Positions 1-12,555 of a stretch of 59,879 nt of DNA are shown piece after piece; within the stretch, counting starts at the first letter, position 1, and every line of letters starts with the position of its first letter. Below the pieces are notes generated by a model. It did not search any database and had not been told where the DNA came from. It saw nothing but the letters and a program-made list of their open reading frames with translations. Origin of the DNA: Erysipelotrichaceae bacterium (GTDB lineage Bacteria; Bacillota_I; Bacilli_A; Erysipelotrichales; Erysipelotrichaceae); NCBI GenBank assembly GCA_017473265.1, contig JAFULQ010000007.1, positions 1-59,879 on the forward strand, in the 5' to 3' direction. Made by a program: the position numbers and the translations under genes.

Positions 1-115
1 AAAGCATTTTTTGTGTGATTGATGGTGTTTCATTAAAAATTGCACTGGCTGTAACAAAGGTAAACATCAACATGGTCAATATTTCAAGATTATATTTTAT
101 AAGAATTTTTTTCAT
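1..115 (-). CDS. Hypothetical protein, N-terminus only (cut by window edge)
   Basis: An open frame starts at an ATG (115-113, minus strand) behind a good GGAGG ribosome site about 11 bases upstream and runs off the left edge after 38 codons. The visible part starts MKKILIKYNLEILTMLMFTF, a lysine-rich start followed by a hydrophobic stretch, so it is probably a signal peptide or first membrane helix. It is divergent from the replication operon and probably lies inside the integrated element. No family is recognisable from this much sequence. Confidence 0.55.
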   Translation of the reverse strand, partial: MKKILIKYNLEILTMLMFTFVTASAIFNETPSITQKML

Positions 116-165
116 ATAGGCAATACCTCCGTAAACTTCAATTTATCTCTTTGTTGTGTATATAA

Positions 166-195
166 ATTATACCATTTTGAATTCATTCATTACAA
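166..195 (-). promoter_or_regulatory. Promoter of the edge-cut left gene
   Basis: Minus-strand TTGTAA (195-190) and TATAAT (171-166) are separated by 18 bases. Transcription would start about 45 bases before the ATG at 115. Confidence 0.5.
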
Positions 196-308
196 GGTAT
201 CAAACAATCGAGCATTTATGAGTATCACTTTTATCAATATATCTTCATACAAAACCTTTTGAAAATTCATAATTATAAACACACTAAAAGTAATACATAT
301 CAATATTG

Positions 309-372
309 TTGCCTAATATACCACGAATGCCACCCGTAGCGAACGGTATAGGCTTGTCTAATACCGTTCGCT
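309..372. other. Candidate replication/transfer origin: 12-bp perfect hairpin plus near-direct repeat
   Basis: AGCGAACGGTAT (338-349) is repeated exactly inverted at 361-372 around an 11-base loop, AGGCTTGTCTA (350-360). The 10-mer TTGYCTAATA occurs at 309-318 and again at 354-363, overlapping the loop and the right stem. The structure lies 33 bases before the start codon of an HUH-type initiator gene. Rolling-circle initiators usually nick in the loop of such a hairpin near their own gene, so this is the best origin candidate. The nick position is not assigned. Confidence 0.5.
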
Positions 373-404
373 GGGTTATTTATAATTGCAACATCGGAGG
401 TACT

Positions 405-1622
405 ATGACACAAGAAAACAAGCAATTGAACCCAGATTTTACCACTTCTCTATGTGAGGTATATTCCACTCATGACTACTTAACAGAAGAGAGAATTATT
501 GAAGTATTAGAAAAATACAAGACAATCGATAAGTATGTTTATATACTTCATGACAAAGATGTTTACACAGAAGAGGAAATCAATAATAATCCTAATAATA
601 CTGGTAAAGTTGGAGAATTTAAGAAACCACATTGGCATGTATATATACATATGACTTCATCCCGAACATTGTATGATATCGGCAAATGGTTTGGTGTTGA
701 ATGGAACTATGTAACACCACCGCGTGATACAAAGAAAAGCGATCAATTTACAAATATGGTCGCCTATGCCGTACACGCTGACAAAAAAGACAAATATCAG
801 TATGACATTAGCGAAGTAAAATCCAAGAATGTTGATGTACAAGCAGTTGTAGATGAATATCTTGAACGAGTAAATAAAAGTAAAGCCAATCAAAAGAAAC
901 AAGATAAGAACACTCAAGAACAACTTCGAATGCGTGCTATCTATACTGATATTGCTCAAGGAGTCATTCGAGAATATAACATCCATGAATATGTTGATGT
1001 GACTACCTTTGCTAAGTTTAGAAGTAAAATCGCTGCAGCCTTTGAGTATAGAAGAAACATAATCAACCAACAGAATCGACAAATGGAAGTATACTATTTC
1101 CAAGGCTTACCAATGACAGGTAAAACCACCTACGCTAAAGAGTTTCTAAAGAACAAAGGCTACTCCTACATGGTTTCTGGTAGTTCTAATGACCCAGTAC
1201 AAAACTACAAAGGAGAAGATGCTATCATCCTTGATGACTTTAGAGCAGAAAATATGACCGTCTCAGACTTACTCAAACTATTAGACAATCATACTAATTC
1301 AGCCGTTAAGAGTCGCTACTTCGATAAAACGATTGAAGTCAAACTCATTATCATCACCTCCGTTAAGACTATCGAAGATTTGTTCTATAACATGAAGAAC
1401 AATGACAATGAACCAATCGAACAATTAAAGCGTAGAATATCAAAATATCTAACATTCACGGACAAAACTATAACCATCCAAACATTCGATGGAGAGAAAA
1501 TGTCTCACATAGAAGTTGGTACAATACCAAATCCAATACCAGAACTTTATCCTCCTAAAGTAGTATCACAAGAAGACAAGGATGTTATTGCTTCAGATTT
1601 TATAATAAACATCGAAAAGTAA
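405..1622 (+). CDS. Replication initiator: HUH (pMV158/Rep_2-like) endonuclease fused to superfamily 3 helicase
   Basis: This 405-residue protein would nick an origin and unwind DNA for rolling-circle replication or transfer. The start at 405 is chosen because GGAGG lies at 396-400; the longer frame from 306 would translate through the upstream hairpin. The HUH domain shows motif I YILHDKD (about 46-52), the metal motif PHWHVYIH (75-82) and motif III YAVHAD followed by K and KYQY, with Y121 as likely nucleophile. A P-loop helicase follows: GLPMTGKTT (Walker A, 234-242), IILDDF (Walker B, 274-279), IIITS (sensor, 315-319) and a double arginine (343-344). This HUH-SF3 layout matches bacterial plasmid relatives of CRESS-DNA virus Reps. 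It heads an operon with the 112-residue protein and the FtsK-like ATPase. It could also act as relaxase, which is inference. Confidence 0.85.
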   Translation: MTQENKQLNPDFTTSLCEVYSTHDYLTEERIIEVLEKYKTIDKYVYILHDKDVYTEEEINNNPNNTGKVGEFKKPHWHVYIHMTSSRTLYDIGKWFGVEWNYVTPPRDTKKSDQFTNMVAYAVHADKKDKYQYDISEVKSKNVDVQAVVDEYLERVNKSKANQKKQDKNTQEQLRMRAIYTDIAQGVIREYNIHEYVDVTTFAKFRSKIAAAFEYRRNIINQQNRQMEVYYFQGLPMTGKTTYAKEFLKNKGYSYMVSGSSNDPVQNYKGEDAIILDDFRAENMTVSDLLKLLDNHTNSAVKSRYFDKTIEVKLIIITSVKTIEDLFYNMKNNDNEPIEQLKRRISKYLTFTDKTITIQTFDGEKMSHIEVGTIPNPIPELYPPKVVSQEDKDVIASDFIINIEK

Positions 1623-1677
1623 TATTTATCATCATTCCATCTATAGTAAATAGACGAATAACTATGGAGGTACCACA

Positions 1678-2016
1678 ATGAAAAAATTAAAGTTATTTGA
1701 ACATTTTGATTACGTATCTTTCTTCAAAGGAAAGAAACTTGTACTTGTGTCTATGACACCGAAGCATACTGACTTCTTTGACGGTGTTGTAGCTGAACTT
1801 GTAATCGTTGAAGACCATACAGACTATGATGGTGAAACTGGTTGCAACAACTACGAGAAATTTACATTTAAAATTCCAAATGTACCAGATGAGTATGTCA
1901 ACGATTTTAAATTGAATCATGTAGTACAAATTTCCGAAGTCCACAAAGCAAAACTTTGGAGTCAAAAAGACAGTTATCAAGTTTCTTTATCCATTGAAGG
2001 AAGATTAGCACAATAG
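1678..2016 (+). CDS. Small hypothetical protein of the integrative element
   Basis: 112 residues, preceded by TATGGAGGTACCACA, a strong ribosome site. It sits between the initiator and the FtsK-like gene with only 3 bases to the latter, so the three are almost certainly co-transcribed. The sequence is soluble, rich in beta-forming and acidic residues, with no signal peptide, membrane segment, cysteine pair or helix-turn-helix visible. In Tn916-like elements a small protein with this kind of composition (DUF961 type) accompanies the FtsK-like gene. I see a similar position but no convincing sequence match, so the function is unassigned. Confidence 0.75.
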   Translation: MKKLKLFEHFDYVSFFKGKKLVLVSMTPKHTDFFDGVVAELVIVEDHTDYDGETGCNNYEKFTFKIPNVPDEYVNDFKLNHVVQISEVHKAKLWSQKDSYQVSLSIEGRLAQ

Positions 2017-2019
2017 GCT

Positions 2020-3300
2020 ATGCGTAAGACAACTGTTACAGAGATTAAGCGAGGGGCACTATTGGGCATTGCCCCTTTTGCTTTGGCGCTTATCTTTATC
2101 GCAAACGATTTACGAAATGTATTACCAGTATTCAATTGGATACGAACATTCGCCTATATCTTGTTATGTCTGTACATCATTTGGGTAATCTACATCATCA
2201 AGAAACATGGTGGTACATATAATCTATTTTTAAAGAACAATATCATCAATTGGCTTGATGACAGTTTAGAATCTGTTGGTGCTTATGTACCGTTATCAGA
2301 CGATATTGTCAAAACACCATCGATTCACGTTGATACTATCAATAGAAGTATCATCATCAATCTTGAAAATCTATACATCAGAAAGAAGGTTGAAGCCTAC
2401 TTTGATGTACTATCTACTGCCCTACCACGCAATCTAAGTGTAGAAAAAGCATGGATAGACAAATCACAAAACAATTTAGTCATAGAGTATCAAGACTTAT
2501 CTAAAGATACTCGTATCATCTATCGTACGGTAAATGACTTTGTTGAACGTACAACCAAGACACTCAAAACCGAACTTATACTGGATAGATATCATTACTT
2601 CGAGCTAAAGAAACTAAACGGACTATTAATCGTTGGTTCTTCTGGCTCTGGTAAAACCTATCTATTACAACAACTCATTCTACAAGCACTTATCAAAAAG
2701 TGGGATGTATCCATCATTGACTATAAGAGAACATACCAAATGTTTGAGGATGTGTGTAACGTTGCTTATAAGGTGGAAGACATCATCCACACATTAGAAC
2801 AAGCCATAGACGAACTACACAAACGTCAAGAGTATATGGATTACTACTTGAGAAGCAATCCCAACGCCTTAGCCGTTGACTGTGGTTACGATGTTAAGTT
2901 CATCGTAATAGAAGAATACTTGGCTCTGGTCAACTCTGGCATTGATAAGAAGACATTAGACAAGATTGAAAAGATGTTACTGGAGTTAGTAACAACTGGA
3001 AGACAAATGAACATCACACTATGCATGTGTATGCAAGTATCTTCCTCTCAAACTCTAAATACTTCTATACGAGCGAATTTACCAGTAAAGATATGTATGG
3101 GTAATGCAAACCGTACAATCCTGGAGACACTATTCGGTATAGGCAATGTGCCGAAGATTCCTACCAAGATGGATATTGGTGAAGGTCTTGCGACTTATGA
3201 CTATGATATCTTCCCAATCAAAGTTCCATCCATTCTATTTGACTATACGGAGTTAATTGCATATATTCAAAACACCAAAGAGGATAGCACATCAGATTGA
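2020..3300 (+). CDS. FtsK/TcpA-type DNA translocase or coupling ATPase
   Basis: 426 residues. Two hydrophobic segments near the N-terminus (about 11-29 and 43-60) anchor it in the membrane. The cytoplasmic part has a Walker A motif GSSGSGKT (206-213) and a Walker B-like IVIEEY (295-300), followed by TTGRQMNITL and a typical FtsK/HerA QxS segment. In integrative conjugative elements such as Tn916 the equivalent protein couples processed DNA to the transfer machinery. No other conjugation genes are visible, so either they lie beyond the left edge or the element is mobilisable only. The ATG is 3 bases after the preceding stop. Confidence 0.8.
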   Translation: MRKTTVTEIKRGALLGIAPFALALIFIANDLRNVLPVFNWIRTFAYILLCLYIIWVIYIIKKHGGTYNLFLKNNIINWLDDSLESVGAYVPLSDDIVKTPSIHVDTINRSIIINLENLYIRKKVEAYFDVLSTALPRNLSVEKAWIDKSQNNLVIEYQDLSKDTRIIYRTVNDFVERTTKTLKTELILDRYHYFELKKLNGLLIVGSSGSGKTYLLQQLILQALIKKWDVSIIDYKRTYQMFEDVCNVAYKVEDIIHTLEQAIDELHKRQEYMDYYLRSNPNALAVDCGYDVKFIVIEEYLALVNSGIDKKTLDKIEKMLLELVTTGRQMNITLCMCMQVSSSQTLNTSIRANLPVKICMGNANRTILETLFGIGNVPKIPTKMDIGEGLATYDYDIFPIKVPSILFDYTELIAYIQNTKEDSTSD

Positions 3301-3304
3301 TGTA

Positions 3305-4711
3305 CTATTCTTTTTTGTTTTCATAATCTTCTAAAGCCACTTTCCATTGGTAATCATAGCTGAAATCATCTTTATTTATCTTTGTAGATGTAATCTTGAA
3401 GCGATCTTCAGCATCACGCGCATCGTAATAGTCTTTAATAATCTTTTCTTCTGTATGACCAATGAACTCTGTAATCTCATCGATTTTATGCCCCTTCTTT
3501 AACATGATAGTGATACGGGAACGTCTAAAGTCATGTTTAGTAAAATGTTCAACTTCACTTTCAATACGTCTATGCCATCTTTTTAATTTCTCATCGACGG
3601 CATGGTCACTCATTTCACCATCTGTTTTTGAAGGGAATAACAATCCATCTTCAATTCCCTTTTGTTCGTAATAGTATTCTAAATCTGTGTAGTATTGGTC
3701 AAAAGCACTTACAAATGGCCCCATAACAAACACTTTGCGAATTGCCGTCTTTGTCTTTGGTGCATCTGCTTCTGCCTCCCTATGTTGTTTACGACGTCCT
3801 GCAGCACATTTACCAGACTTCGCCTTATCAATAGAAATCTTTACTGCCTCTTCACCTTTAACATCTTCAAACTTCACATCACTCATACGCAACGGTCTTG
3901 CCTCGGACATTCTCATTCCCGTGTAGAATAGAACACTAAACAACATATAGTAACGACAATCCATAATGAAATTCTTCTTATACTTTCTCACAAACTCTTC
4001 ATATATGTCTGGCATTGGGTATTGTCCATTTTTGAAGTATTTGCCATCATCAAGCAATCTCAAGAACTGTTCATCATTCACAATGCGTTTTGCTCTGTTA
4101 ATAGAATTATTGTTCTTTCTCACTTTGTGATTACAGAATGTGAATACACTAACCAACTGTACATATCTATCGTAATCTTCAAAACATGAAATACGATTTG
4201 CATAATTGATTAGTTCATTCATAGCACTTCGCATTTTGGTATAGGTTCTACCACTAATGCTCCCTTCATCATAGAAGTTATAGATTCTATTTAACCAACC
4301 ATTGATATCACTTGCTGTAAGTTTTTGTACTTGCTTATTTCGAATATGCACTGGTGTATATTGCTCTAAAGTTCCCTTACACATTACAAGACTACGCATT
4401 GTACTAATACTTGTTTCTCGTGTTGTCTCTTTGATTTTTCTTTTCTTGTTTAACATATCATCAATATAATGATTGGCTACATCTTCAACAGTATACTTCG
4501 AAGTATCACTTGCAATTGCATCACCCATGATGCGGTCAATTTTCAACTGTGCATTTTGTATTGCTTCTTTAGGAGTATCAAATGTATTACTTCTGCCAGT
4601 CTTTCTATCTTTATCAACATAGTATGTAAATTGGCAATAATATTTTATTTTCCCATCCTTAAGATTCTTTACTGTAGGCTTGCAAATTCGTGGGTTTGTA
4701 ATTGTTTTCAT
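3305..4711 (-). CDS. int: Tyrosine recombinase (integrase) of the tmRNA-associated element
   Basis: 468 residues, convergent with the FtsK-like gene (4-base gap) and facing away from ssrA. The N-terminal part resembles the arm-binding domain of Tn916/lambda-type integrases, followed by a SAM-like core-binding domain (about 75-200). The catalytic domain shows the arginine in TGMRMSEAR, HDFRRSR (His-x-x-Arg) and GHTEEKIIKDYY with the nucleophilic tyrosine. It is longer than the usual 380-400 residues because of an insertion containing KCAAGRRKQHREAEAD before the second half of the catalytic domain. The start has GAGG ten bases upstream. It should integrate and excise the element at the 3' end of ssrA, whose CCA end lies 164 bases from its start. 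Confidence 0.93.
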   Translation of the reverse strand: MKTITNPRICKPTVKNLKDGKIKYYCQFTYYVDKDRKTGRSNTFDTPKEAIQNAQLKIDRIMGDAIASDTSKYTVEDVANHYIDDMLNKKRKIKETTRETSISTMRSLVMCKGTLEQYTPVHIRNKQVQKLTASDINGWLNRIYNFYDEGSISGRTYTKMRSAMNELINYANRISCFEDYDRYVQLVSVFTFCNHKVRKNNNSINRAKRIVNDEQFLRLLDDGKYFKNGQYPMPDIYEEFVRKYKKNFIMDCRYYMLFSVLFYTGMRMSEARPLRMSDVKFEDVKGEEAVKISIDKAKSGKCAAGRRKQHREAEADAPKTKTAIRKVFVMGPFVSAFDQYYTDLEYYYEQKGIEDGLLFPSKTDGEMSDHAVDEKLKRWHRRIESEVEHFTKHDFRRSRITIMLKKGHKIDEITEFIGHTEEKIIKDYYDARDAEDRFKITSTKINKDDFSYDYQWKVALEDYENKKE

Positions 4712-4772
4712 GTAAAATACCTCGCTTTCACCTATATTTTACAACAATAAAAATAAAAGTCCACCAATCTGA

Positions 4773-4814
4773 AAAATGGTATACAAAAAATGGTATACAA
4801 TTGTATACCATTTT
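4773..4814. repeat. Three contiguous perfect copies of a 14-bp unit (two direct, one inverted)
   Basis: The unit AAAATGGTATACAA occurs at 4773-4786 and 4787-4800 in direct orientation, then exactly inverted at 4801-4814. The last two form a 28-bp perfect palindrome. The array lies between the integrase start and the tmRNA end. Possible roles are arm-type binding sites of the integrase, an operator for its expression, or a site for an excision factor; the sequence alone does not decide. Confidence 0.85.
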
Positions 4815-4827
4815 ATATATATCAATG

Positions 4828-4863
4828 TATCAAAAACCCTTTATTTATAGGCATTTTTTGATA
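4828..4863. terminator. AT-rich inverted repeat downstream of ssrA
   Basis: TATCAAAAA (4828-4836) and TTTTTGATA (4855-4863) form a 9-bp stem 12 bases past the tmRNA CCA end. On the minus strand no long U-run follows, so termination is only plausible. It may equally be part of the element's attachment region. Confidence 0.35.
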
Positions 4864-4874
4864 TTTTTGACTTA

Positions 4875-5229
4875 TGGTGGAGGTGAGGAGAGTCGAACTC
4901 CTGTCCAAAATGAGTCCCACATTCAGGCGTCTACAGTTTAGTTTATCAAGATAACACATATACTCTGTGACAAACAGCAGAAAATATATGGTCCTTCGTG
5001 AGATTTTCGTCGTGGTATATCCGAAGCCATATAACACGCTTATCCTCAGTATCTTGCGCCTATGATAAGCCCCAAGGCATACCTATCTAGACGACTGCTG
5101 GCTCTTACGGCGAGCTAACTATGCAGCGAAACTTAATGTATTGTTTCCAGTTATTTTTTGTTGACCTTTAGGTAGTCACACCACTGCAGCCCAAATCCAA
5201 CGTCACCCTGTCGAAACCATGACACCCCC
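4875..5229 (-). ncRNA. ssrA: tmRNA (transfer-messenger RNA), one-piece
   Basis: The minus strand reads GGGGGTGTCATGGTTTCGAC at its 5' end (from 5229) and ends with the T-loop GAGTTCGACTC and encoded CCA (4877-4875). The 7-bp acceptor stem GGGGGUG pairs with CACCUCC with one G-U pair. The tag frame ends at a TAG (5121-5119) and reads GQQKITGNNTLSFAA if it resumes at GGT (5166-5164). The FAA end resembles the ALAA/AVAA degradation signals, but the exact resume codon is inferred. It rescues stalled ribosomes with SmpB, encoded 6 kb away. An integrative element abuts its 3' end without breaking it. Confidence 0.95.
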
Positions 5230-5247
5230 AGATTTCTATGCGAACAA

Positions 5248-5276
5248 AGTATATACTAAACAAAACTAATAGTCAA
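5248..5276 (-). promoter_or_regulatory. ssrA promoter
   Basis: Minus-strand TTGACT (5276-5271), 17-base spacer, TATACT (5253-5248). The transcript would start about 12 bases before the mature 5' end, consistent with trimming by RNase P. Confidence 0.75.
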
Positions 5277-5283
5277 ATACTAA

Positions 5284-5757
5284 TTAATCCCTGGTAATTT
5301 TAGTGACCAACGCATTTGTGGAATGAATTAAATCATTTGATGCAATATGCAACTGTAAACCAAGTTTCCCACCGGATACATATACCTTATCTACTTCTTC
5401 AATTGATTGATCAATAATCGTTGGAAATACCTTTTTCATCGCAAAAGGAGAACACCCACCACGAACATAACCTGTTGTAGGTAATAATGTTTTCATAGGT
5501 ATCATTTCAATTGATTTCTCATTCACTGCTTTTGCACACAACTTTAAATCCAATTCCTTATTTGCTGGTAGAATAAACACATAATGATTCTTACTAGGCG
5601 CAATTGTAACCAATGTTTTAAATACACAATTTACATCCGCATTTAATTTCTTCGCCACTTCAATACCATCCATTGCTTCTTTACATGGATATTCAACTAC
5701 ACCATACTCTACCTTTAACTTATCTAATAATCGCATCGCATTTGTTTTTACTGCCAT
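5284..5757 (-). CDS. ybaK: YbaK/EbsC-family aminoacyl-tRNA deacylase (Cys-tRNA(Pro) type)
   Basis: 157 residues, the usual size for YbaK. These cytoplasmic proteins hydrolyse mischarged tRNA, typically Cys-tRNA(Pro), that ProRS makes by mistake. Family hallmarks visible are the early KTLV segment, HYVFILPANKELDLKL, and GGCSPFAMKK with a conserved lysine near the active site. The start at 5757 is chosen because AAAGGTGG lies 8 bases upstream; the longer frame runs into the upstream AT-rich promoter region. It is transcribed alone, towards the ssrA promoter and divergently from lemA. Confidence 0.88.
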   Translation of the reverse strand: MAVKTNAMRLLDKLKVEYGVVEYPCKEAMDGIEVAKKLNADVNCVFKTLVTIAPSKNHYVFILPANKELDLKLCAKAVNEKSIEMIPMKTLLPTTGYVRGGCSPFAMKKVFPTIIDQSIEEVDKVYVSGGKLGLQLHIASNDLIHSTNALVTKITRD

Positions 5758-5851
5758 AATCATCACCACCTTTATTATACAACAGTTATTTTTCTTGCAC
5801 ACATAAGTTATCCATAATAAAATATAATTATAAGGAAAGGAGATGAAACTT

Positions 5852-6400
5852 ATGTTGATTATTCTATTAGTTATCATCGCTGTCGTTGCAATTTGGTTCA
5901 TCGGAACTTACAACGGATTTATTCAATTACGAAATAAAGTAGAGGAAGCATTCTCTACAATGGACGTTTACTTAGTAAAACGTTATGATTTGATTCCAAA
6001 TTTAGTAGAAACTGTAAAAGGTTATGCTAAACATGAATCAGAAACTCTTGAAAATGTTATTAAAGCTAGAAATGCTGCAATGTCAGCTACTACACCAGCA
6101 GAAAAAATGGAATCAGACAACCAATTATCTGGTGTATTAAGTCGTTTCATGGCACTTGCGGAAAGCTATCCAGAGTTGAAAGCAAACACAAACTTCATTG
6201 ATTTACAAAATCAATTACAAAGAATGGAAGACGAAATTGCAAATTCTAGAAAATACTACAATGGAGTTGTTAAACAATTTAATACAAAATGTGAAACGAT
6301 TCCAAGTAATATTGTTGCGAATATTGCAGGATTTGAAAAACAACCATTATTTGTGGTTAATGAAGACAAACAAAGAGAAAACGTTAAAGTTCAATTCTAG
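5852..6400 (+). CDS. lemA: LemA family membrane-anchored protein
   Basis: 182 residues with one N-terminal membrane helix (LIILLVIIAVVAIWFIG) followed by the conserved LemA opening YNGFIQLRNKVEEAFSTMDVYLVKRYDLIPNLVETVKGYAKHE and a long helical body. LemA proteins are widespread and poorly understood; a role in envelope function is usually assumed. The ATG at 5852 has AAAGGAG nine bases before it; the ATG at 5843 directly abuts the ribosome site and is less likely. It is paired with the DUF2207 gene, a common neighbour in Firmicutes. Confidence 0.92.
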   Translation: MLIILLVIIAVVAIWFIGTYNGFIQLRNKVEEAFSTMDVYLVKRYDLIPNLVETVKGYAKHESETLENVIKARNAAMSATTPAEKMESDNQLSGVLSRFMALAESYPELKANTNFIDLQNQLQRMEDEIANSRKYYNGVVKQFNTKCETIPSNIVANIAGFEKQPLFVVNEDKQRENVKVQF

Positions 6401-6427
6401 ACTATTGCTTACGCAATAGTCCTTTTT
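6400..6427 (+). terminator. Terminator/attenuator between lemA and the DUF2207 gene
   Basis: ACTATTGC (6401-6408), TTAC loop, GCAATAGT (6413-6420), then CCTTTTT. It starts at the lemA stop codon and lies 14 bases before the next start, so downstream expression would depend on read-through. Confidence 0.75.
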
Positions 6428-6440
6428 ACAAGGAGGTACT

Positions 6441-8318
6441 ATGAAAATTAAGAAAATATTAATTCTAATATGTATTAGTATTCTTTTATTACTATCCCTT
6501 TTTCAACCATTAAGAGCCTATGAAGAATTCTACTTTGACGAATACTCTATTGAACTCGATGTAAAAGAAAATGGAGAAATCCATGTAAAAGAAACCTTTG
6601 ATACCAATTTCACTGGTGCTTTACATGGTATCTATATTGATATTCCTGCCGCATATGAAATGATGTGGGAAGATGGTAGTATTAAAGACTATTACTTTCC
6701 TATCACTGATGTTAAAGTCAATTCTAATCATGATTATTTAATTGAGAACTATACAGATGGTGTGCAAATTCGTTTAGGTAGTGAATATTATTATGCTTCT
6801 ACTAATGAAGTGTATAGTATTGAATATGTTCTTCACACAAAAGATTTAGATTTAGATGGCAGACAAATGCTCTTCTATAATTTAATTTCAAAGAATTGGG
6901 ATACGTATTTCAATAAAATCAATTTCAGAATTCATTTACCAAAAGAAATTGATGAGAATACTATTGTATTTGATACACCAGAAGGCATTGTTAAAGAAAG
7001 CAATGATATTTTCACATATACCTATAGAGGCAATACTATTGCTGGTTCTTATAATAAACAATTAGCTGAAAATAATGCCATTACTTTATGGATTGAATTA
7101 CCGAATGGTTATTTTAACTTCCCAAATGTGGATATATATAACTATATTGCTTTAGGTATTTCTATCCTATTTACAGCTATTATTGCTCTAATCTTTATTA
7201 AAAAAGGAAAAGATGAACCACTAATTCCAGTTATCGAATTTACTGCCCCAGAAGATTTAAATAGTGCAGAAGTTGGATATGTAATTGATGGAGTTTGTGA
7301 TAATCGTGATGTTGTGTCTTTAATTCTTTATTGGGCACAAAAAGGTTATTTAACGATTGAAGATAATGAACAAACCAATGAACTTATTTTCCATAAATTA
7401 ACCAATATACCAGATACAGAAAACGTGTATGAAAAACACATGTTTACAAAATTATTTGCGACTAGTGATTCTGTCACAACTGATTCTTTAAAAGGAACAT
7501 TCTATCAAACTATTCAGGCAACCATTGAAAAAGTAGGACAAAAATTTAGCACTAAAGATAAACGCATTTATCAATCCAAAGCCTTACAAGTATTTACTTG
7601 TTTAGTTGCTGGCTTCCCACTAGCTCTCGCAACTGCTATACAATTATATGCTCAAATACTTGCTATTGATTTGGCGATGATTGTTTTTGGAATATACGTT
7701 ACAGTAATTGCGACACTAACAGCTATCTTAATTTACTGTTTCAATCGTTGGTATTCTTCAAGTACAGGAAGCAAAATTGCTTCAATTGCGATTGTAAGTA
7801 TTGTTACCATTCTTATTGTATTGATTAGTTACTTTATCTTTAAATCTATGATTCCAGTTCCATTATTAATTGTACAAGTACTGTTATGCGTAGCTATTAT
7901 GTTAATGAGTGCGAACATGAGACAAAGAAGTAAATATGGTAATGAATTACTAGGTCGAGTTGTAGGATTACGTGATTTTATTCTTACAGCTGAAAAAGAT
8001 CGTTTAGACATGTTAGTAAAAGAAAATCCAACCATTTTCTATGATATCTTACCTTATGCTTATGCATTTGGTATTACCGATGTATGGAGTGAACACTTCA
8101 AAGACATAGAATTAGAACCATGTACCTGGTATACCTACTATGGTACAGACTATAATTTCTACCGTCTAACAAGAAGAATGAGCACGTCTATGAACCAATT
8201 CCAAAGCGCTGCTACCTATATACCAGAAACCGAAAAATCCAGTGGGGGATTTAGTGGTGGTTCTGGCGGAGGATTCTCTGGAGGCGGATTTGGTGGCTCT
8301 GGCGGAGGCGGCTGGTAA
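6441..8318 (+). CDS. DUF2207 membrane protein with glycine-rich tail
   Basis: 625 residues. A signal peptide (to about LFQPLRA) is followed by an extracytoplasmic beta-rich DUF2207 domain (EYSIELDVKENGEIHVKETF), a membrane helix near 230-252, a cytoplasmic region, two to three more helices around 385-485, and a C-terminal tail made almost only of Gly, Ser and Phe ending in GGGGW. Such tails are typical of this family. It pairs with LemA and probably works in the same envelope process, the nature of which is unknown. The start has AAGGAGG at the usual distance. Confidence 0.88.
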   Translation: MKIKKILILICISILLLLSLFQPLRAYEEFYFDEYSIELDVKENGEIHVKETFDTNFTGALHGIYIDIPAAYEMMWEDGSIKDYYFPITDVKVNSNHDYLIENYTDGVQIRLGSEYYYASTNEVYSIEYVLHTKDLDLDGRQMLFYNLISKNWDTYFNKINFRIHLPKEIDENTIVFDTPEGIVKESNDIFTYTYRGNTIAGSYNKQLAENNAITLWIELPNGYFNFPNVDIYNYIALGISILFTAIIALIFIKKGKDEPLIPVIEFTAPEDLNSAEVGYVIDGVCDNRDVVSLILYWAQKGYLTIEDNEQTNELIFHKLTNIPDTENVYEKHMFTKLFATSDSVTTDSLKGTFYQTIQATIEKVGQKFSTKDKRIYQSKALQVFTCLVAGFPLALATAIQLYAQILAIDLAMIVFGIYVTVIATLTAILIYCFNRWYSSSTGSKIASIAIVSIVTILIVLISYFIFKSMIPVPLLIVQVLLCVAIMLMSANMRQRSKYGNELLGRVVGLRDFILTAEKDRLDMLVKENPTIFYDILPYAYAFGITDVWSEHFKDIELEPCTWYTYYGTDYNFYRLTRRMSTSMNQFQSAATYIPETEKSSGGFSGGSGGGFSGGGFGGSGGGGW

Positions 8319-8325
8319 AACATAC

Positions 8326-8352
8326 AAAAAGTCACTATTCAGTGACTTTTTT
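8326..8352. terminator. Bidirectional terminator
   Basis: AAAAAGTCACT (8326-8336), ATTC loop, AGTGACTTTTTT. It ends the DUF2207 transcript. Its right part overlaps the stop of the small minus-strand gene, whose transcript it could also end. Confidence 0.85.
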
Positions 8353-8475
8353 CTTTTGACTCATTAAGTCCAATTTTTCTGTTTCGTTTAAATACCCATA
8401 TTTTTCAAACACATTCAAATCATTATCTGAACACCTATTTGATAAATACAAGAAACGAATGGTTTCTTTCATCAT
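8335..8475 (-). CDS. Small hypothetical protein, 46 residues
   Basis: The minus strand has ATG ATG (from 8475) behind AAGGAAG and an open frame of 46 codons ending inside the terminator hairpin. The product starts MMKETIRFLYLSNRC and continues with a short charged helix ending in KKKVTE, which looks like real protein and not random AT-rich translation. It fills a gap of more than 300 bases between convergent and divergent neighbours. No family is recognised. Confidence 0.5.
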   Translation of the reverse strand: MMKETIRFLYLSNRCSDNDLNVFEKYGYLNETEKLDLMSQKKKVTE

Positions 8476-8581
8476 ACTTTCGCTTCCTTTATACCACACT
8501 ACTTATGGATACTTCTATTATATGGGAACACTAACCATAATCCTGTCGCTATTTGTCGAACATATACAATAATATTTCTTG

Positions 8582-8610
8582 TTGTATTTACAAAAGGTAT
8601 TTGCTATAAT
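8582..8610 (+). promoter_or_regulatory. Promoter of secG-rnr-smpB
   Basis: TTGTAT (8582-8587), 17-base spacer, TATAAT (8605-8610) with an upstream TG (8602-8603) giving an extended -10. It is about 30 bases before the secG start. Confidence 0.75.
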
Positions 8611-8645
8611 GTTAGGGCGTATAGAATCAGAGAGGAGTGTATCCC

Positions 8646-8870
8646 ATGTTAGACATTATCTTATTGATCGTGGCTATTCTTATCATTTTACTAACATTAT
8701 TACAAAGTGGTAAATCTGAAGGTATGAGTGGTGCTTTCACAGGTGGAAGTGGACTTAACCTATTTACTAACGTTAAAGAACGTGGACCAGAAAAAATTAT
8801 TGCAAATGCTACTTTAGTTTTAGGTTTCGTATTCTTTGCTTTAGTTATTGCTATTAACTTAGTACACTAG
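8646..8870 (+). CDS. secG: Preprotein translocase subunit SecG
   Basis: 74 residues: two membrane helices (about 2-20 and 53-72) around the conserved loop LLQSGKSEGMSGAFTGGSG. SecG is the small accessory subunit of the SecYEG channel. The ATG at 8646 is preferred because GAGAGGAG lies nine bases before it; an in-frame GTG at 8637 abuts the ribosome site. It leads the conserved secG-rnr-smpB cluster. Confidence 0.93.
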   Translation: MLDIILLIVAILIILLTLLQSGKSEGMSGAFTGGSGLNLFTNVKERGPEKIIANATLVLGFVFFALVIAINLVH

Positions 8871-8888
8871 TAATTCGTAGAAAAAGAT

Positions 8889-8915
8889 AAAAGGTCATGA
8901 TTGACCTTTTTATTT
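8889..8915 (+). terminator. Hairpin between secG and rnr
   Basis: AAAAGGTCA (8889-8897), TGAT loop, TGACCTTTT and a T-rich tail. It probably reduces transcription into rnr, whose ribosome site follows at once. Confidence 0.7.
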
Positions 8916-8936
8916 TTGTGCAAAGGAGGAATTTTT

Positions 8937-11075
8937 ATGAAACAAAAAATTCTAGACATATTAGCGATTCAAAAGAAAGCTGTATCTTACAGTTATTTAA
9001 AAGAAGAACTACATATTGAAACAAAAGAAGACTTTACTCTATTTATGAAAACCATCAACCAATGTATTGATGATTTAGAAATAGTAGAAACAGACCAACA
9101 CGAATTGGTACTTTTAGAATACTCTAACTTACTAAAAGGTATTCTACGCATCAACCGTAAAGGCTTTGGCTTTGTAGATGGAGAAGAACAAAGCGTCTAT
9201 ATTCATGAACGCAACTTACACGGTGCCTTAGATGAAGATGAAGTATTAGCTAAAGTATGGACCAATAAAGACGGTTCTGTAGAAGGTAGCGTATATAAGA
9301 TTGTTAAAAATAAACTAAAGAATATTGTAGGTAATATTCGCAAACGTAACAATCGTTTAACCTTCATTCCAGATAGCGAAACAATTACACATCCAATTAA
9401 GATTACCAATATGAATGACTTACCATTAGTCGATGGTCATAAAGTCATTTGTAAAATCCTAAGTTACGGTTCTGTTTTAACTTGTGAAATTGAACAAATC
9501 ATTGGACATATTAATGATCCAGGTGTAGATATTCAAGGTATCTTATTAGCTCATGATATTCAAGCAGAATTCCCAAGTGAAGTGATTCGCCAAGCAAAAT
9601 CATTAACGAAACAAATTAGTGATGATGAAAGAGCCAAACGCAAAGACTTAACAAGAAGAATTATTATTACTATTGATGGTGATGATGCGAAAGACTTAGA
9701 TGATGCCATTAGTATCAAACGCTTAAAAGATGGTGCCTTTAGATTAGGTGTACACATTGCAGATGTATCTCATTATGTACAAGCCAATACTCCATTAGAC
9801 AAAGAAGCCTATAATCGTTCAACATCTGTCTATGTTGTTGATAGAGTTGTACCAATGTTACCACATATCTTATCTAATGATATTTGTTCATTACAACCAA
9901 AAGAAGAACGTTTAACCATTACTTGTGAGATGGACATTGATAAAGATGGAAATGTTTTTAATTATCAACTATTCCCATCTATCATTCGTTCTACAGAACG
10001 TATGACCTATAACAATGTAAATCGCATCTTAGCAGGTGATTATCGTTTAATTACTAAATATAAACATATTTATGATTCCATCATTGCTATGGCACAATTA
10101 TCAGAAATCATTCGCAATAAACGCGAAGGCAATGGAAGTATTGATTTTGAAAAACCAGAAGCAATTATTGAATTAAATGAACAAGGAAAGATTTCGGATA
10201 TTCGTGTACGCGAACGCCATTATGCTGAAAAAATGATTGAAGACTTCATGGTAACCGCTAATGAATGCGTAGCTAAACATATGAAATGGTTAGAATACCC
10301 ATGCTTATATCGTATCCATGAACAACCATCTCTAAAGAAAATGAGAGAATTTGTTCGCATTGCGAAAATCATGGGCTATACATGGAATGGTGGCATTCAA
10401 AGTGTATATCCAAAACAATTCCAAGAATTATTAAACGAAAGTCGTAATACCGATGCTTATCCTATTTTATCTACAACCATGTTACGTAGTATGTCAAAAG
10501 CAAAATATGATAAAACATGTGTCGGTCACTTTGGTCTTGCATTAAACGAATATTTACACTTTACTTCACCAATTCGTAGATATCCTGACTTAATTGTACA
10601 TAGAATGCTAAGAAAATATGGATTTGAACAATGCATTGACACAGAACAATTAGAACATGATATACTACTACTTGAAGACATGGCTGAACAAACTTCCTAT
10701 CAAGAACGTAATGCCGTTGATGCAGAACGTGAAGTAGAAGATATGAAAAAAGCAGAATACATGGAAACACAAGTTGGTAAAATCTTTAATGGTATCATTA
10801 GTGGAATTACAAACTTTGGTGTATTCGTAGAACTACCAAATACCATTGAAGGATTGGTACATGTTAGTGAAATGCATGATGACCACTACAACTTCTCACA
10901 AGAAGCCTATGCTATGATTGGTCAAAGAACACATAAAATGTATCGCATTGGACAAAAAGTAAAAGTTAAATGTATCAAAGCAAGTCGTTTCACTCAAAGT
11001 GTTGACTTCGCTTTTGTAGAAAAGGAGAGAGGACATGGAAAAGGTTATCGCCGTAAACCGAAAGGCAAGGCATGA
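8937..11075 (+). CDS. rnr: Ribonuclease R (3'-5' exoribonuclease)
   Basis: 712 residues. Order of domains: N-terminal winged-helix-like segment, cold-shock domains with RKGFGFVDGEEQSVYIHERNL, the RNB catalytic domain with DGDDAKDLDDAIS metal-binding aspartates (about 240-252), and a C-terminal S1 domain (GIISGITNFGVFVELPNTIEGLVHV) with a basic end. It degrades structured RNA and, in many bacteria, non-stop mRNA released by trans-translation, which fits the neighbouring smpB and ssrA. The start at 8937 has CAAAGGAGG; the upstream part of the open frame lies in the terminator. Confidence 0.95.
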   Translation: MKQKILDILAIQKKAVSYSYLKEELHIETKEDFTLFMKTINQCIDDLEIVETDQHELVLLEYSNLLKGILRINRKGFGFVDGEEQSVYIHERNLHGALDEDEVLAKVWTNKDGSVEGSVYKIVKNKLKNIVGNIRKRNNRLTFIPDSETITHPIKITNMNDLPLVDGHKVICKILSYGSVLTCEIEQIIGHINDPGVDIQGILLAHDIQAEFPSEVIRQAKSLTKQISDDERAKRKDLTRRIIITIDGDDAKDLDDAISIKRLKDGAFRLGVHIADVSHYVQANTPLDKEAYNRSTSVYVVDRVVPMLPHILSNDICSLQPKEERLTITCEMDIDKDGNVFNYQLFPSIIRSTERMTYNNVNRILAGDYRLITKYKHIYDSIIAMAQLSEIIRNKREGNGSIDFEKPEAIIELNEQGKISDIRVRERHYAEKMIEDFMVTANECVAKHMKWLEYPCLYRIHEQPSLKKMREFVRIAKIMGYTWNGGIQSVYPKQFQELLNESRNTDAYPILSTTMLRSMSKAKYDKTCVGHFGLALNEYLHFTSPIRRYPDLIVHRMLRKYGFEQCIDTEQLEHDILLLEDMAEQTSYQERNAVDAEREVEDMKKAEYMETQVGKIFNGIISGITNFGVFVELPNTIEGLVHVSEMHDDHYNFSQEAYAMIGQRTHKMYRIGQKVKVKCIKASRFTQSVDFAFVEKERGHGKGYRRKPKGKA

Positions 11076-11484
11076 TTATTTCTTAGAAGAATTTATTGAA
11101 GCTGGAATGGTTTTAACAGGAACAGAAATTAAATCCATTCGTAAAGGTAAAGTACAATTCAAAGATGCCTATATTGATTTCATTGATAATGAAGCCTATA
11201 TTCGTGATATGCACATTGCGGCATATGATCATGGAAACATCTTTAACCATGAAGAAACTAGACTTCGTAAATTATTATTACATCGTTTAGAAATTCGTAG
11301 ACTTTCTCAAAAAGTAAAAATTAAAGGTTACACAATTGTACCGACTCGTTTATATTTAAAAGATGGTCGTGCAAAATTGGAAATCGCTCTAGCAAAAGGT
11401 AAAGAATTACACGACAAACGTAATACTTTAAAAGAAAGAGACGCTCAAAGAGAAATCGAAAAAGCAATGAAAGTTAGATACTAA
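11035..11484 (+). CDS. smpB: SsrA-binding protein SmpB
   Basis: 149 residues, full length. Conserved features are NRKARHDYFLEEFIEAGMVLTGTEIKSIR at the start of the OB-fold, the GKELHDKR segment, and a basic C-terminal tail for entry into the ribosomal mRNA channel. SmpB binds tmRNA and delivers it to stalled ribosomes. Its start overlaps the last 41 bases of rnr in another frame and has GAGAGGAC upstream, so translation of the two is probably coupled. Confidence 0.96.
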   Translation: MEKVIAVNRKARHDYFLEEFIEAGMVLTGTEIKSIRKGKVQFKDAYIDFIDNEAYIRDMHIAAYDHGNIFNHEETRLRKLLLHRLEIRRLSQKVKIKGYTIVPTRLYLKDGRAKLEIALAKGKELHDKRNTLKERDAQREIEKAMKVRY

Positions 11485-11516
11485 AAAAGTTGTTGGAACT
11501 ATCTCCAACAACTTTT
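11485..11516. terminator. Bidirectional terminator smpB / M42 peptidase
   Basis: AAAAGTTGTTGGA (11485-11497) and its exact complement TCCAACAACTTTT (11504-11516) with a 6-base loop between convergent genes. Confidence 0.85.
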
Positions 11517-11517
11517 C

Positions 11518-12555
11518 TTATTTATAGGGATTTAAATCAAACTCTTCATCTAAATCAACTAAGAAATTCGCAATCAAATCAACGCAATCCTCAATATCCT
11601 TCAAACTTCCTACTTCACTAGGAGAATGCATATAACGTAAAGGAATCGATACTAATGCAAAAGGAACACCAGCACCTGTTCTATATAAAGAATCACCATC
11701 AGTATATGTATTTCCACCAGTACCTTCCCATTGAATATTGATATTATGCTTCTTAGCTGTTTCTGCTAATAAATCATTTAATTCTCTATTAATTGTAGAA
11801 CCATGACATAATACAGGACCACCATTCAACTTAATATCACCATAAACTTGTCCTGCACCAATACCATCACTAGCATACGTAACATCCACAATAATAGCAC
11901 AATCTGGTTTTTCATTAGCACCAGCATAAAAAGCACCGCGACCACTCGTTTCTTCACCTACTGTTGTTACTGCTACTACATCCACTTTAGCACTCATCTC
12001 TTTAGCTTTTTTCATAGCTTCAATAACAATATACGCACCAATACGATCATCCATAGCACGCGCAGTAATACAATTATTTAATAGTGGACGAGCATCTGTA
12101 TCTAAGATGACGTAATCACCATGAGAAACGATTGACATCGCCTCTTCTTTAGAAGTAGCCCCAATATCAATCCACAAATCGTCACAAGAAACATCTTTAT
12201 TTTTAAGTAAATCATCAGATACACCAACAGCACCATAGACAATACCATTCTTCGTAAGAATACGTACCTTTTGACCAAAATATGTTGGAACACGAACCCC
12301 ACCTGAACGAATCACTTTTAAACAACCTTCACTAGTAAAATTCACAACCATCAATGAAATTTCATCAATATGTCCACATAACATAACTTTTTTATCACCA
12401 GCAGAAACATATTTAGCATAGACATTTCCAGTCACATCTGTATCCACAATATCCGCAAATGTTTGTGTATATTCCATTACTTTCTTTTGTAAAGTAAATT
12501 CATCACCACTTGGAGAAGCAGTACTCAACATATCAAATAAAAACTCTTTATTCAT
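11518..12555 (-). CDS. M42 family metallo-aminopeptidase
   Basis: 345 residues, normal for the M42 glutamyl/deblocking aminopeptidase family (PepA/FrvX/YsdC). Metal and catalytic motifs visible: LCGHIDE, the bridging aspartate in TARAMDDRIG, GEETSGRGA with paired glutamates, and DVTYASDG. These cytosolic dodecameric enzymes trim peptides. The ATG at 12555 has AGGTG upstream; a GTG at 12564 is less likely. It overlaps the end of the acetyltransferase gene by 8 bases and closes that small operon. Confidence 0.9.
   Translation of the reverse strand: MNKEFLFDMLSTASPSGDEFTLQKKVMEYTQTFADIVDTDVTGNVYAKYVSAGDKKVMLCGHIDEISLMVVNFTSEGCLKVIRSGGVRVPTYFGQKVRILTKNGIVYGAVGVSDDLLKNKDVSCDDLWIDIGATSKEEAMSIVSHGDYVILDTDARPLLNNCITARAMDDRIGAYIVIEAMKKAKEMSAKVDVVAVTTVGEETSGRGAFYAGANEKPDCAIIVDVTYASDGIGAGQVYGDIKLNGGPVLCHGSTINRELNDLLAETAKKHNINIQWEGTGGNTYTDGDSLYRTGAGVPFALVSIPLRYMHSPSEVGSLKDIEDCVDLIANFLVDLDEEFDLNPYK

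What the first reader, a model, noticed from the sequence alone, without database searches (positions are those of the whole stretch)
1..4875. Integrative element at tmRNA carrying an HUH-SF3 initiator and an FtsK-type ATPase
A tyrosine integrase, an FtsK/TcpA-type ATPase, a 112-residue unknown protein and a pMV158-like HUH nuclease joined to an SF3 helicase lie together next to the ssrA 3' end. The initiator combines the nuclease of small plasmids with the helicase of CRESS-DNA viruses. With the ATPase in the same operon, the initiator may serve both to replicate the excised circle and to start transfer. The small gene between them has no known role. This is the best candidate for a little-described system in the window.
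Basis: partly seen in the sequence, partly recalled or inferred. Interest (0 to 1): 0.78.

Follow-up and report, generated by a model that had tools for sequence, protein, structure and literature searches.

The report
Mobilizable element with virus-like replication starter
A gut bacterium carries, right behind its tmRNA gene, a DNA element of a known kind that probably copies itself and starts its transfer with one virus-like protein; the work here adds a recurring hairpin that is probably the cutting site and a small protein that recurs next to the DNA pump.

Summary
Window 405-4711 carries a Rep (PF01719 nuclease + PF00910 SF3 helicase), a 112-aa protein, a membrane-anchored TcpA/FtsK ATPase and, convergent, a tyrosine integrase abutting ssrA. 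A congener with about 95% DNA identity lacks the element exactly from the ssrA 3' end outward (window 4871), so it is an insertion. The far end is not in the contig.

The kind is known: putative IMEs with Rel_PF01719-PF00910 relaxases (IME_Class_4, Coluzzi 2017) and integrated pCRESS plasmids (Kazlauskas 2019). Three things go beyond the finding. (1) A perfect 12-bp hairpin 32 nt before rep has loop GGCTTGT. The same loop in unrelated stems occurs in 16 loci with related Reps (phytoplasma, Staphylococcus, Lactococcus, Leptotrichia plasmids; Erysipelotrichaceae IMEs) and in 0 of 405 kb of loci lacking this Rep: probable nick site. (2) The 112-aa family recurs next to TcpA in all 8 loci found, with three HUH families, one on a plasmid that has its own Rep3 initiator; it therefore belongs to transfer. 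(3) Its predicted fold is OB/SSB-like (moderate confidence), as in HelP/OrfM relaxosome proteins, without detectable sequence homology. Replication plus transfer by one initiator is likely but untested.

The parts
338..372 (+). hairpin: 12-bp perfect arms (338-349, 361-372) with loop AGGCTTGTCTA; candidate Rep nick site (double-strand origin and perhaps oriT)
   Evidence: 0 of 300 base shuffles of 120-404 gave such arms
405..1622 (+). rep: PF01719 nuclease (about 519-824) joined to PF00910/SF3 helicase (about 1095-1361), 405 aa
   Evidence: RBS
1678..2016 (+). orf112: small protein of a family that accompanies tcpA; predicted OB-like fold
2020..3300 (+). tcpA: FtsK/SpoIIIE-domain coupling-type ATPase with two N-terminal membrane segments
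3305..4711 (-). tyrosine integrase gene, 468 aa
4772..4824 (.). direct and inverted repeats AAAAATGGTATACA between int and ssrA; possible integrase arm sites or operator (inference)
4871..5229 (-). ssrA (tmRNA 4875-5229) and the junction to the element at its 3' end (homology to the empty site ends at 4871)

Best explanation
A putative integrative and mobilizable element of the Rel_PF01719-PF00910 type in an Erysipelotrichaceae genome, inserted by its tyrosine integrase at the 3' end of ssrA. Shown: the genes, the insertion point, the shared hairpin loop, and the recurring orf112-tcpA pair. Inferred: after excision, Rep recognises the hairpin at 338-372, its active tyrosine cuts in the GGCTTGT loop and its SF3 domain unwinds, giving rolling-circle replication of the circle as expected for the related phytoplasma and Staphylococcus plasmids. 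The same nick also starts transfer: ORF112, an OB-fold-like single-strand-binding or relaxosome accessory, and TcpA, the membrane-anchored coupling ATPase, hand the Rep-bound strand to the mating pore of a resident conjugative element.
For: Domains; conserved HxH, Tyr, Walker A and B residues; empty site in a congener. The same hairpin loop lies in free plasmids whose Rep must replicate them, including pQA504, which has its own MOBP relaxase. Orf112-tcpA accompanies three HUH families, one of them on a Rep3 plasmid that does not need the HUH protein to replicate. TcpA has two membrane segments. ORF112's predicted fold has SSB and PriB as best hits, with ICESt3 OrfM at rank 21. Literature: IME_Class_4 (PMC5357655), dual role of NicK with HelP (PMC3542172), essential OB-fold relaxosome proteins OrfL/OrfM (PMC12614216).
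Against: No nicking, replication or transfer data. Distal end, cargo and attR are missing, so excision is unproven. No excisionase gene lies in the visible part. DUF961, a mark of Tn916-type helpers, was not found in this genome. The ORF112 model has pLDDT 64 and a second family member failed to fold.
Confidence: 0.7

Rival explanations
1. Integrated rolling-circle plasmid: Rep and hairpin only replicate and stabilise the excised circle; TcpA and ORF112 serve another purpose (for example double-stranded DNA movement or segregation), and the element is not mobilised by conjugation through Rep.
For: Closest Reps are on free plasmids without tcpA (phytoplasma); many integrated Rep-int pairs lack tcpA; small Staphylococcus plasmids carry rep, a small ORF and an FtsK-like gene without known transfer.
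Against: orf112-tcpA recurs with unrelated HUH proteins, even beside an independent Rep3 initiator, and resembles the helP-conQ-nicK arrangement (PMC3542172).
Confidence: 0.18
2. Decayed remnant: the visible genes are what is left of an IME that can no longer excise or transfer.
For: No xis and no second att site seen; the related G047 copy has a frameshifted tcpA.
Against: All four window genes are intact, catalytic residues are conserved, and the contig ends inside the region, so absence proves nothing.
Confidence: 0.12
3. The hairpin at 338-372 is an ordinary transcription terminator or operator of rep, not an origin.
For: It folds stably (-25 kcal/mol for the 56-nt stretch around it, RNA parameters) and lies just before rep.
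Against: The loop, not the stem, is conserved, at varying distance before rep in plasmids of several bacterial phyla; no T tract follows the stem in the window.
Confidence: 0.07

Closest known systems
IME_Class_4 elements of streptococci (Rel_PF01719-PF00910, TcpA or none, tyrosine integrase; PMC5357655)
   Same: relaxase domain content, tyrosine integrase, TcpA coupling protein, site-specific integration
   Different: here rep comes first and tcpA last, int is convergent, no xis next to int, target is ssrA, and an orf112 is present; streptococcal order is tcpA-relaxase-xis-int
pCRESS integrated and free plasmids, YLxH supergroup (pCPa-like; PMC6668415)
   Same: nuclease-helicase Rep, closest sequence relatives among phytoplasma plasmids, same hairpin loop
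   Different: phytoplasma plasmids are free and lack int, tcpA and orf112; the window Rep has YAVH instead of YLxH
ICEBs1/Tn916/ICESt3 helP-conQ-nicK modules (PMC3542172, PMC12614216)
   Same: small (predicted) OB-fold protein next to a TcpA-type coupling protein and a rolling-circle-type HUH relaxase
   Different: relaxase is PF01719-SF3 rather than MobT/Rep_trans; ORF112 is not detectably homologous to DUF961; no conjugation pore genes visible
Plasmid pRGI00142 (HG796265) and small Staphylococcus plasmids (MK024372, CP038247)
   Same: pRGI00142 has orf112 and tcpA homologues beside an HUH gene; the Staphylococcus plasmids have the order rep, small ORF, FtsK-like gene and the same hairpin loop
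   Different: pRGI00142 has a PF23343 HUH protein and a Rep3 initiator; the Staphylococcus small ORF (82-90 aa) shows no evident resemblance to ORF112, and the FtsK-like protein checked has no clear N-terminal membrane segment

Membership tests
IME_Class_4 (Rel_PF01719-PF00910) | relaxase with PF01719 + PF00910 (the class is defined by relaxase content) | tested here: met
   both above Pfam cut-off
IME_Class_4 (Rel_PF01719-PF00910) | tyrosine integrase | tested here: met
IME_Class_4 (Rel_PF01719-PF00910) | specific integration with two att boundaries | tested here: inconclusive
   ssrA side shown by empty site; far side outside the contig
IME_Class_4 (Rel_PF01719-PF00910) | usual compact order tcpA-relaxase-xis-int (described as typical, not as the definition) | tested here: not met
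   order here is rep-orf112-tcpA with convergent int
IME_Class_4 (Rel_PF01719-PF00910) | mobilisation in trans by a conjugative element | not testable with these tools
   needs mating experiments
pCRESS, YLxH supergroup | nuclease-helicase Rep grouping with pCPa-like Reps | tested here: met
   (9-row clade, support 100/100; inner order unresolved)
pCRESS, YLxH supergroup | YLxH in motif III | tested here: not met
   YAVH in the window; YLTH and YLIH in the G047 and G318 relatives; YMIH in several phytoplasma Reps
pMV158/pE194 plasmids | Rep without helicase domain | tested here: not met
   PF00910 present
pMV158/pE194 plasmids | nick site TACTAC(C)G/A | tested here: not met
   the hairpin loop is AGGCTTGTCTA
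HelP/DUF961 (for ORF112) | DUF961 (PF06125) sequence profile | tested here: not met
   no Pfam match, no PF06125 hit in G000, hhalign probability 6%
HelP/DUF961 (for ORF112) | OB fold | tested here: inconclusive
   model pLDDT 64 with OB strand order and SSB/PriB hits, none below E 0.001; second member not folded
HelP/DUF961 (for ORF112) | gene next to coupling protein and HUH relaxase | tested here: met
   all 8 loci
TcpA coupling proteins | single FtsK/SpoIIIE domain with N-terminal membrane segments | tested here: met
   CONJscan profile not available here

The most novel reading that the evidence does not exclude
Nuclease-helicase Reps of this group, on plasmids from phytoplasmas to fusobacteria and on chromosomal IMEs, share one nick site: a hairpin with loop GGGCTTGTY, different from the pMV158 site. 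A mobile orf112-tcpA cassette turns replicons with different HUH initiators (PF01719-SF3, PF02407, PF23343) into mobilizable elements, with ORF112 a new OB-fold relaxosome family in the place of HelP.
Probability: 0.5. Interest if true: 0.65.

Novelty: new variant of a known kind. Interest (0 to 1): 0.52.

Why it matters
IMEs with initiator-type relaxases are abundant, but in the papers read here their nick sites and accessory proteins are inferred or not named. A concrete 35-bp candidate origin and a named accessory protein make the question 'is the replication initiator also the relaxase?' directly testable with purified Rep and short oligonucleotides. The shared loop ties phytoplasma, staphylococcal and other plasmids and chromosomal IMEs into one origin group, which bears on the proposed origin of CRESS-DNA virus replication from such plasmids.

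Tried and rejected
attR sought as a copy of the ssrA 3' end in the own genome: only two other matches, both in tRNA-Gly 3' ends. The G003 downstream flank sought in G000: only two short matches. Collection scans: viral contigs with Rep, TcpA and ORF112 gave no relatives; genome contigs with TcpA gave one locus, the G318 element. ORF112 as a DUF961 member: rejected on sequence. ORF112 as a partner of one Rep family: rejected because it accompanies three HUH families. Genome-wide hairpin model: 11 matches in 356 genomes, 6 of them in genomes or contigs with such Reps, 5 in or beside unrelated genes at E 0.02-0.09, as chance would give; the model alone is too weak for annotation. No hairpin with this loop was found for pCPa (L107), pRGI00478 (L123, Rep cut) or pRGI00490 (L125). 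Stem covariation is partly by construction, since arms were chosen for pairing; the argument rests on the loop. One hairpin count left out the window by a naming error and was repeated correctly; one script ran into its time limit. Paper searches for the loop sequence were uninformative, so that it is undescribed cannot be asserted.

Full report
OBSERVATION. The window is the whole of contig C29 (59,879 bp) of a 1.80-Mb, 29-contig genome; a relative in the same family (G318) is the MAG CALUVF01, an uncultured Erysipelotrichaceae bacterium. On the + strand lie rep (405-1622), orf112 (1678-2016) and tcpA (2020-3300), with gaps of 55 and 3 nt; a tyrosine integrase gene (3305-4711) converges on them and abuts ssrA (4875-5229, - strand).

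INSERTION. Three congeners carry ssrA without this Rep. G003 is 94.9% identical over window 4871-9000, and homology stops 4 nt beyond the tmRNA 3' end. Beyond it G003 has a MATE transporter region. The insertion is therefore at the 3' end of ssrA and leaves it intact. The distal end is not in the contig: its first 141 bases are shared exactly with contig C26 and then diverge, the signature of an assembly branch point. Apart from two imperfect tRNA-Gly matches, no second copy of the ssrA end was found in the assembly.

REP. Pfam gives PF01719 and PF00910, both above cut-off. The HxH pair, the motif III tyrosine (YAVH) and Walker A and B align with phytoplasma, Lactococcus and IME Reps. Best hits are phytoplasma plasmid Reps (36% over 96%) and, more weakly, Staphylococcus, Lactococcus and Leptotrichia plasmids. 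In a 14-row tree it lies in a fully supported clade with these, apart from the group that holds the PF02407-type Rep of G054; its place inside the clade is unresolved.

HAIRPIN. A 12-bp perfect stem with loop AGGCTTGTCTA ends 32 nt before rep. The two other Erysipelotrichaceae elements of this type (G047, G318) have a hairpin between tcpA and rep, with unrelated stems and loop GGGCTTGTCT. In 629 kb of fetched loci, GGCTTGT in a hairpin (arm of 7 or more) occurs 16 times, each time in a locus with a PF01719 Rep: phytoplasma, Staphylococcus, Lactiplantibacillus, Lactococcus and Leptotrichia plasmids, and chromosomal elements. It does not occur in 405 kb of loci without such a Rep, PF02407 and PF23343 elements included; the 139 permutations of the motif average 0.33 hits (the best permutation overlaps the motif itself). 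In most cases it lies upstream of rep; in G497 it is upstream of the first gene of the putative operon, and in G466 it is downstream of a Rep without helicase. A covariance model from 12 hairpins picked up one not used to build it, with loop GGGCTCGT, on S. haemolyticus p4. Across 356 genomes the model is only moderately specific. The loop differs from the pMV158-type nick TACTAC(C)G/A (PMC3541243). That it is the nick site is inference; no cleavage data exist.

ORF112 AND TCPA. ORF112 has no Pfam match above cut-off and no NCBIfam match. Homologues occur in 7 of 316 genomes of the order (window's own included), all in one family, and on plasmid pRGI00142. In all 8 loci it adjoins tcpA or lies in the same short gene run (in G207 the contig ends in the start of a tcpA-like ORF, judged by eye). 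The HUH protein differs: PF01719-PF00910 in the window and G047, PF01719 in G318 (cut by the contig end), PF02407 in G054, PF23343 in pRGI00142, G270 and G218; in G207 it is not seen. pRGI00142 also has a Rep3 initiator, which argues that its HUH-TcpA-ORF112 set is for transfer. The AlphaFold model of ORF112 (pLDDT 64) has the strand and helix order of an OB fold; Foldseek's first hits are SSB and PriB proteins, with ICESt3 OrfM (9hnj) at rank 21, none below E 0.001; VIA-align Z reaches 7.3, a level that can reflect a common arrangement. A second member did not fold confidently. By profile comparison it is not DUF961. HelP is needed for ICEBs1 replication and transfer and its gene usually precedes those of the coupling protein and relaxase (PMC3542172); OrfL and OrfM are essential OB-fold relaxosome proteins (PMC12614216). 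ORF112 is proposed as a functional counterpart, not as a member of that family. TcpA has two N-terminal membrane segments, as do its relatives in G318, pRGI00142, G054 and G218.

KNOWN OR NEW. Coluzzi 2017 (PMC5357655) lists 15 streptococcal IMEs with Rel_PF01719-PF00910, 4 of them with TcpA, all with tyrosine integrases; Kazlauskas 2019 (PMC6668415) describes integrated pCRESS plasmids. So the kind is known. The order rep-orf112-tcpA with convergent int, the ssrA target, the ORF112 family and the family-wide loop are the additions; whether the loop is described in papers outside the held library could not be checked.

CONFIDENCE (my estimates). Gene content and insertion: near certain. Hairpin as Rep origin: about 0.85. 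Transfer role of Rep with TcpA and ORF112: about 0.7. OB fold of ORF112: about 0.65.

Noticed in passing
L037 (G270 contig C53), 8910-11378: The orf112, tcpA and HUH genes of this relative contain in-frame TGA (1, 4 and 1) and no TGG, where tryptophan would fit, while its integrase (8 TGG), its neighbours and the sampled host genes follow the standard code with TGA as a stop: a mobilisation module that looks imported from a TGA=Trp organism, or dead in this host.
   Followed up: partly
window 1-141 and G000:C26:1-141 (L033): Two contigs start with the same 141 bases (the beginning of a short minus-strand ORF, MKKILIKYNLEILTMLMF...) and then diverge; C26 continues into another element with a PemK-like gene and two tyrosine integrases.
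   Followed up: partly
L066 (G218) 6981-11745: An orf112-tcpA-PF23343 module lies beside a gene that looks like a large serine recombinase, so the module is not tied to tyrosine integrases.
   Followed up: no
L121 1-2403 and L124 69-2554: Small Staphylococcus plasmids carry rep, an 82-90-aa ORF and an FtsK-like gene in the same order as the window, with hairpin loop TGGGCTTGTT before rep; their small ORFs resemble each other and form another unnamed family.
   Followed up: partly
L115 (G466) 4306-4337 and 8118-8690: A GGCTTGT hairpin with 13-bp arms lies about 4 kb downstream of a 190-aa Rep without helicase, near an ORF that looks like a Zot-type ATPase; possibly a filamentous-phage-like element.
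   Followed up: no
L019 (G047) 4231-5414: tcpA of this otherwise similar element is split by an apparent frameshift near residue 279.
   Followed up: no
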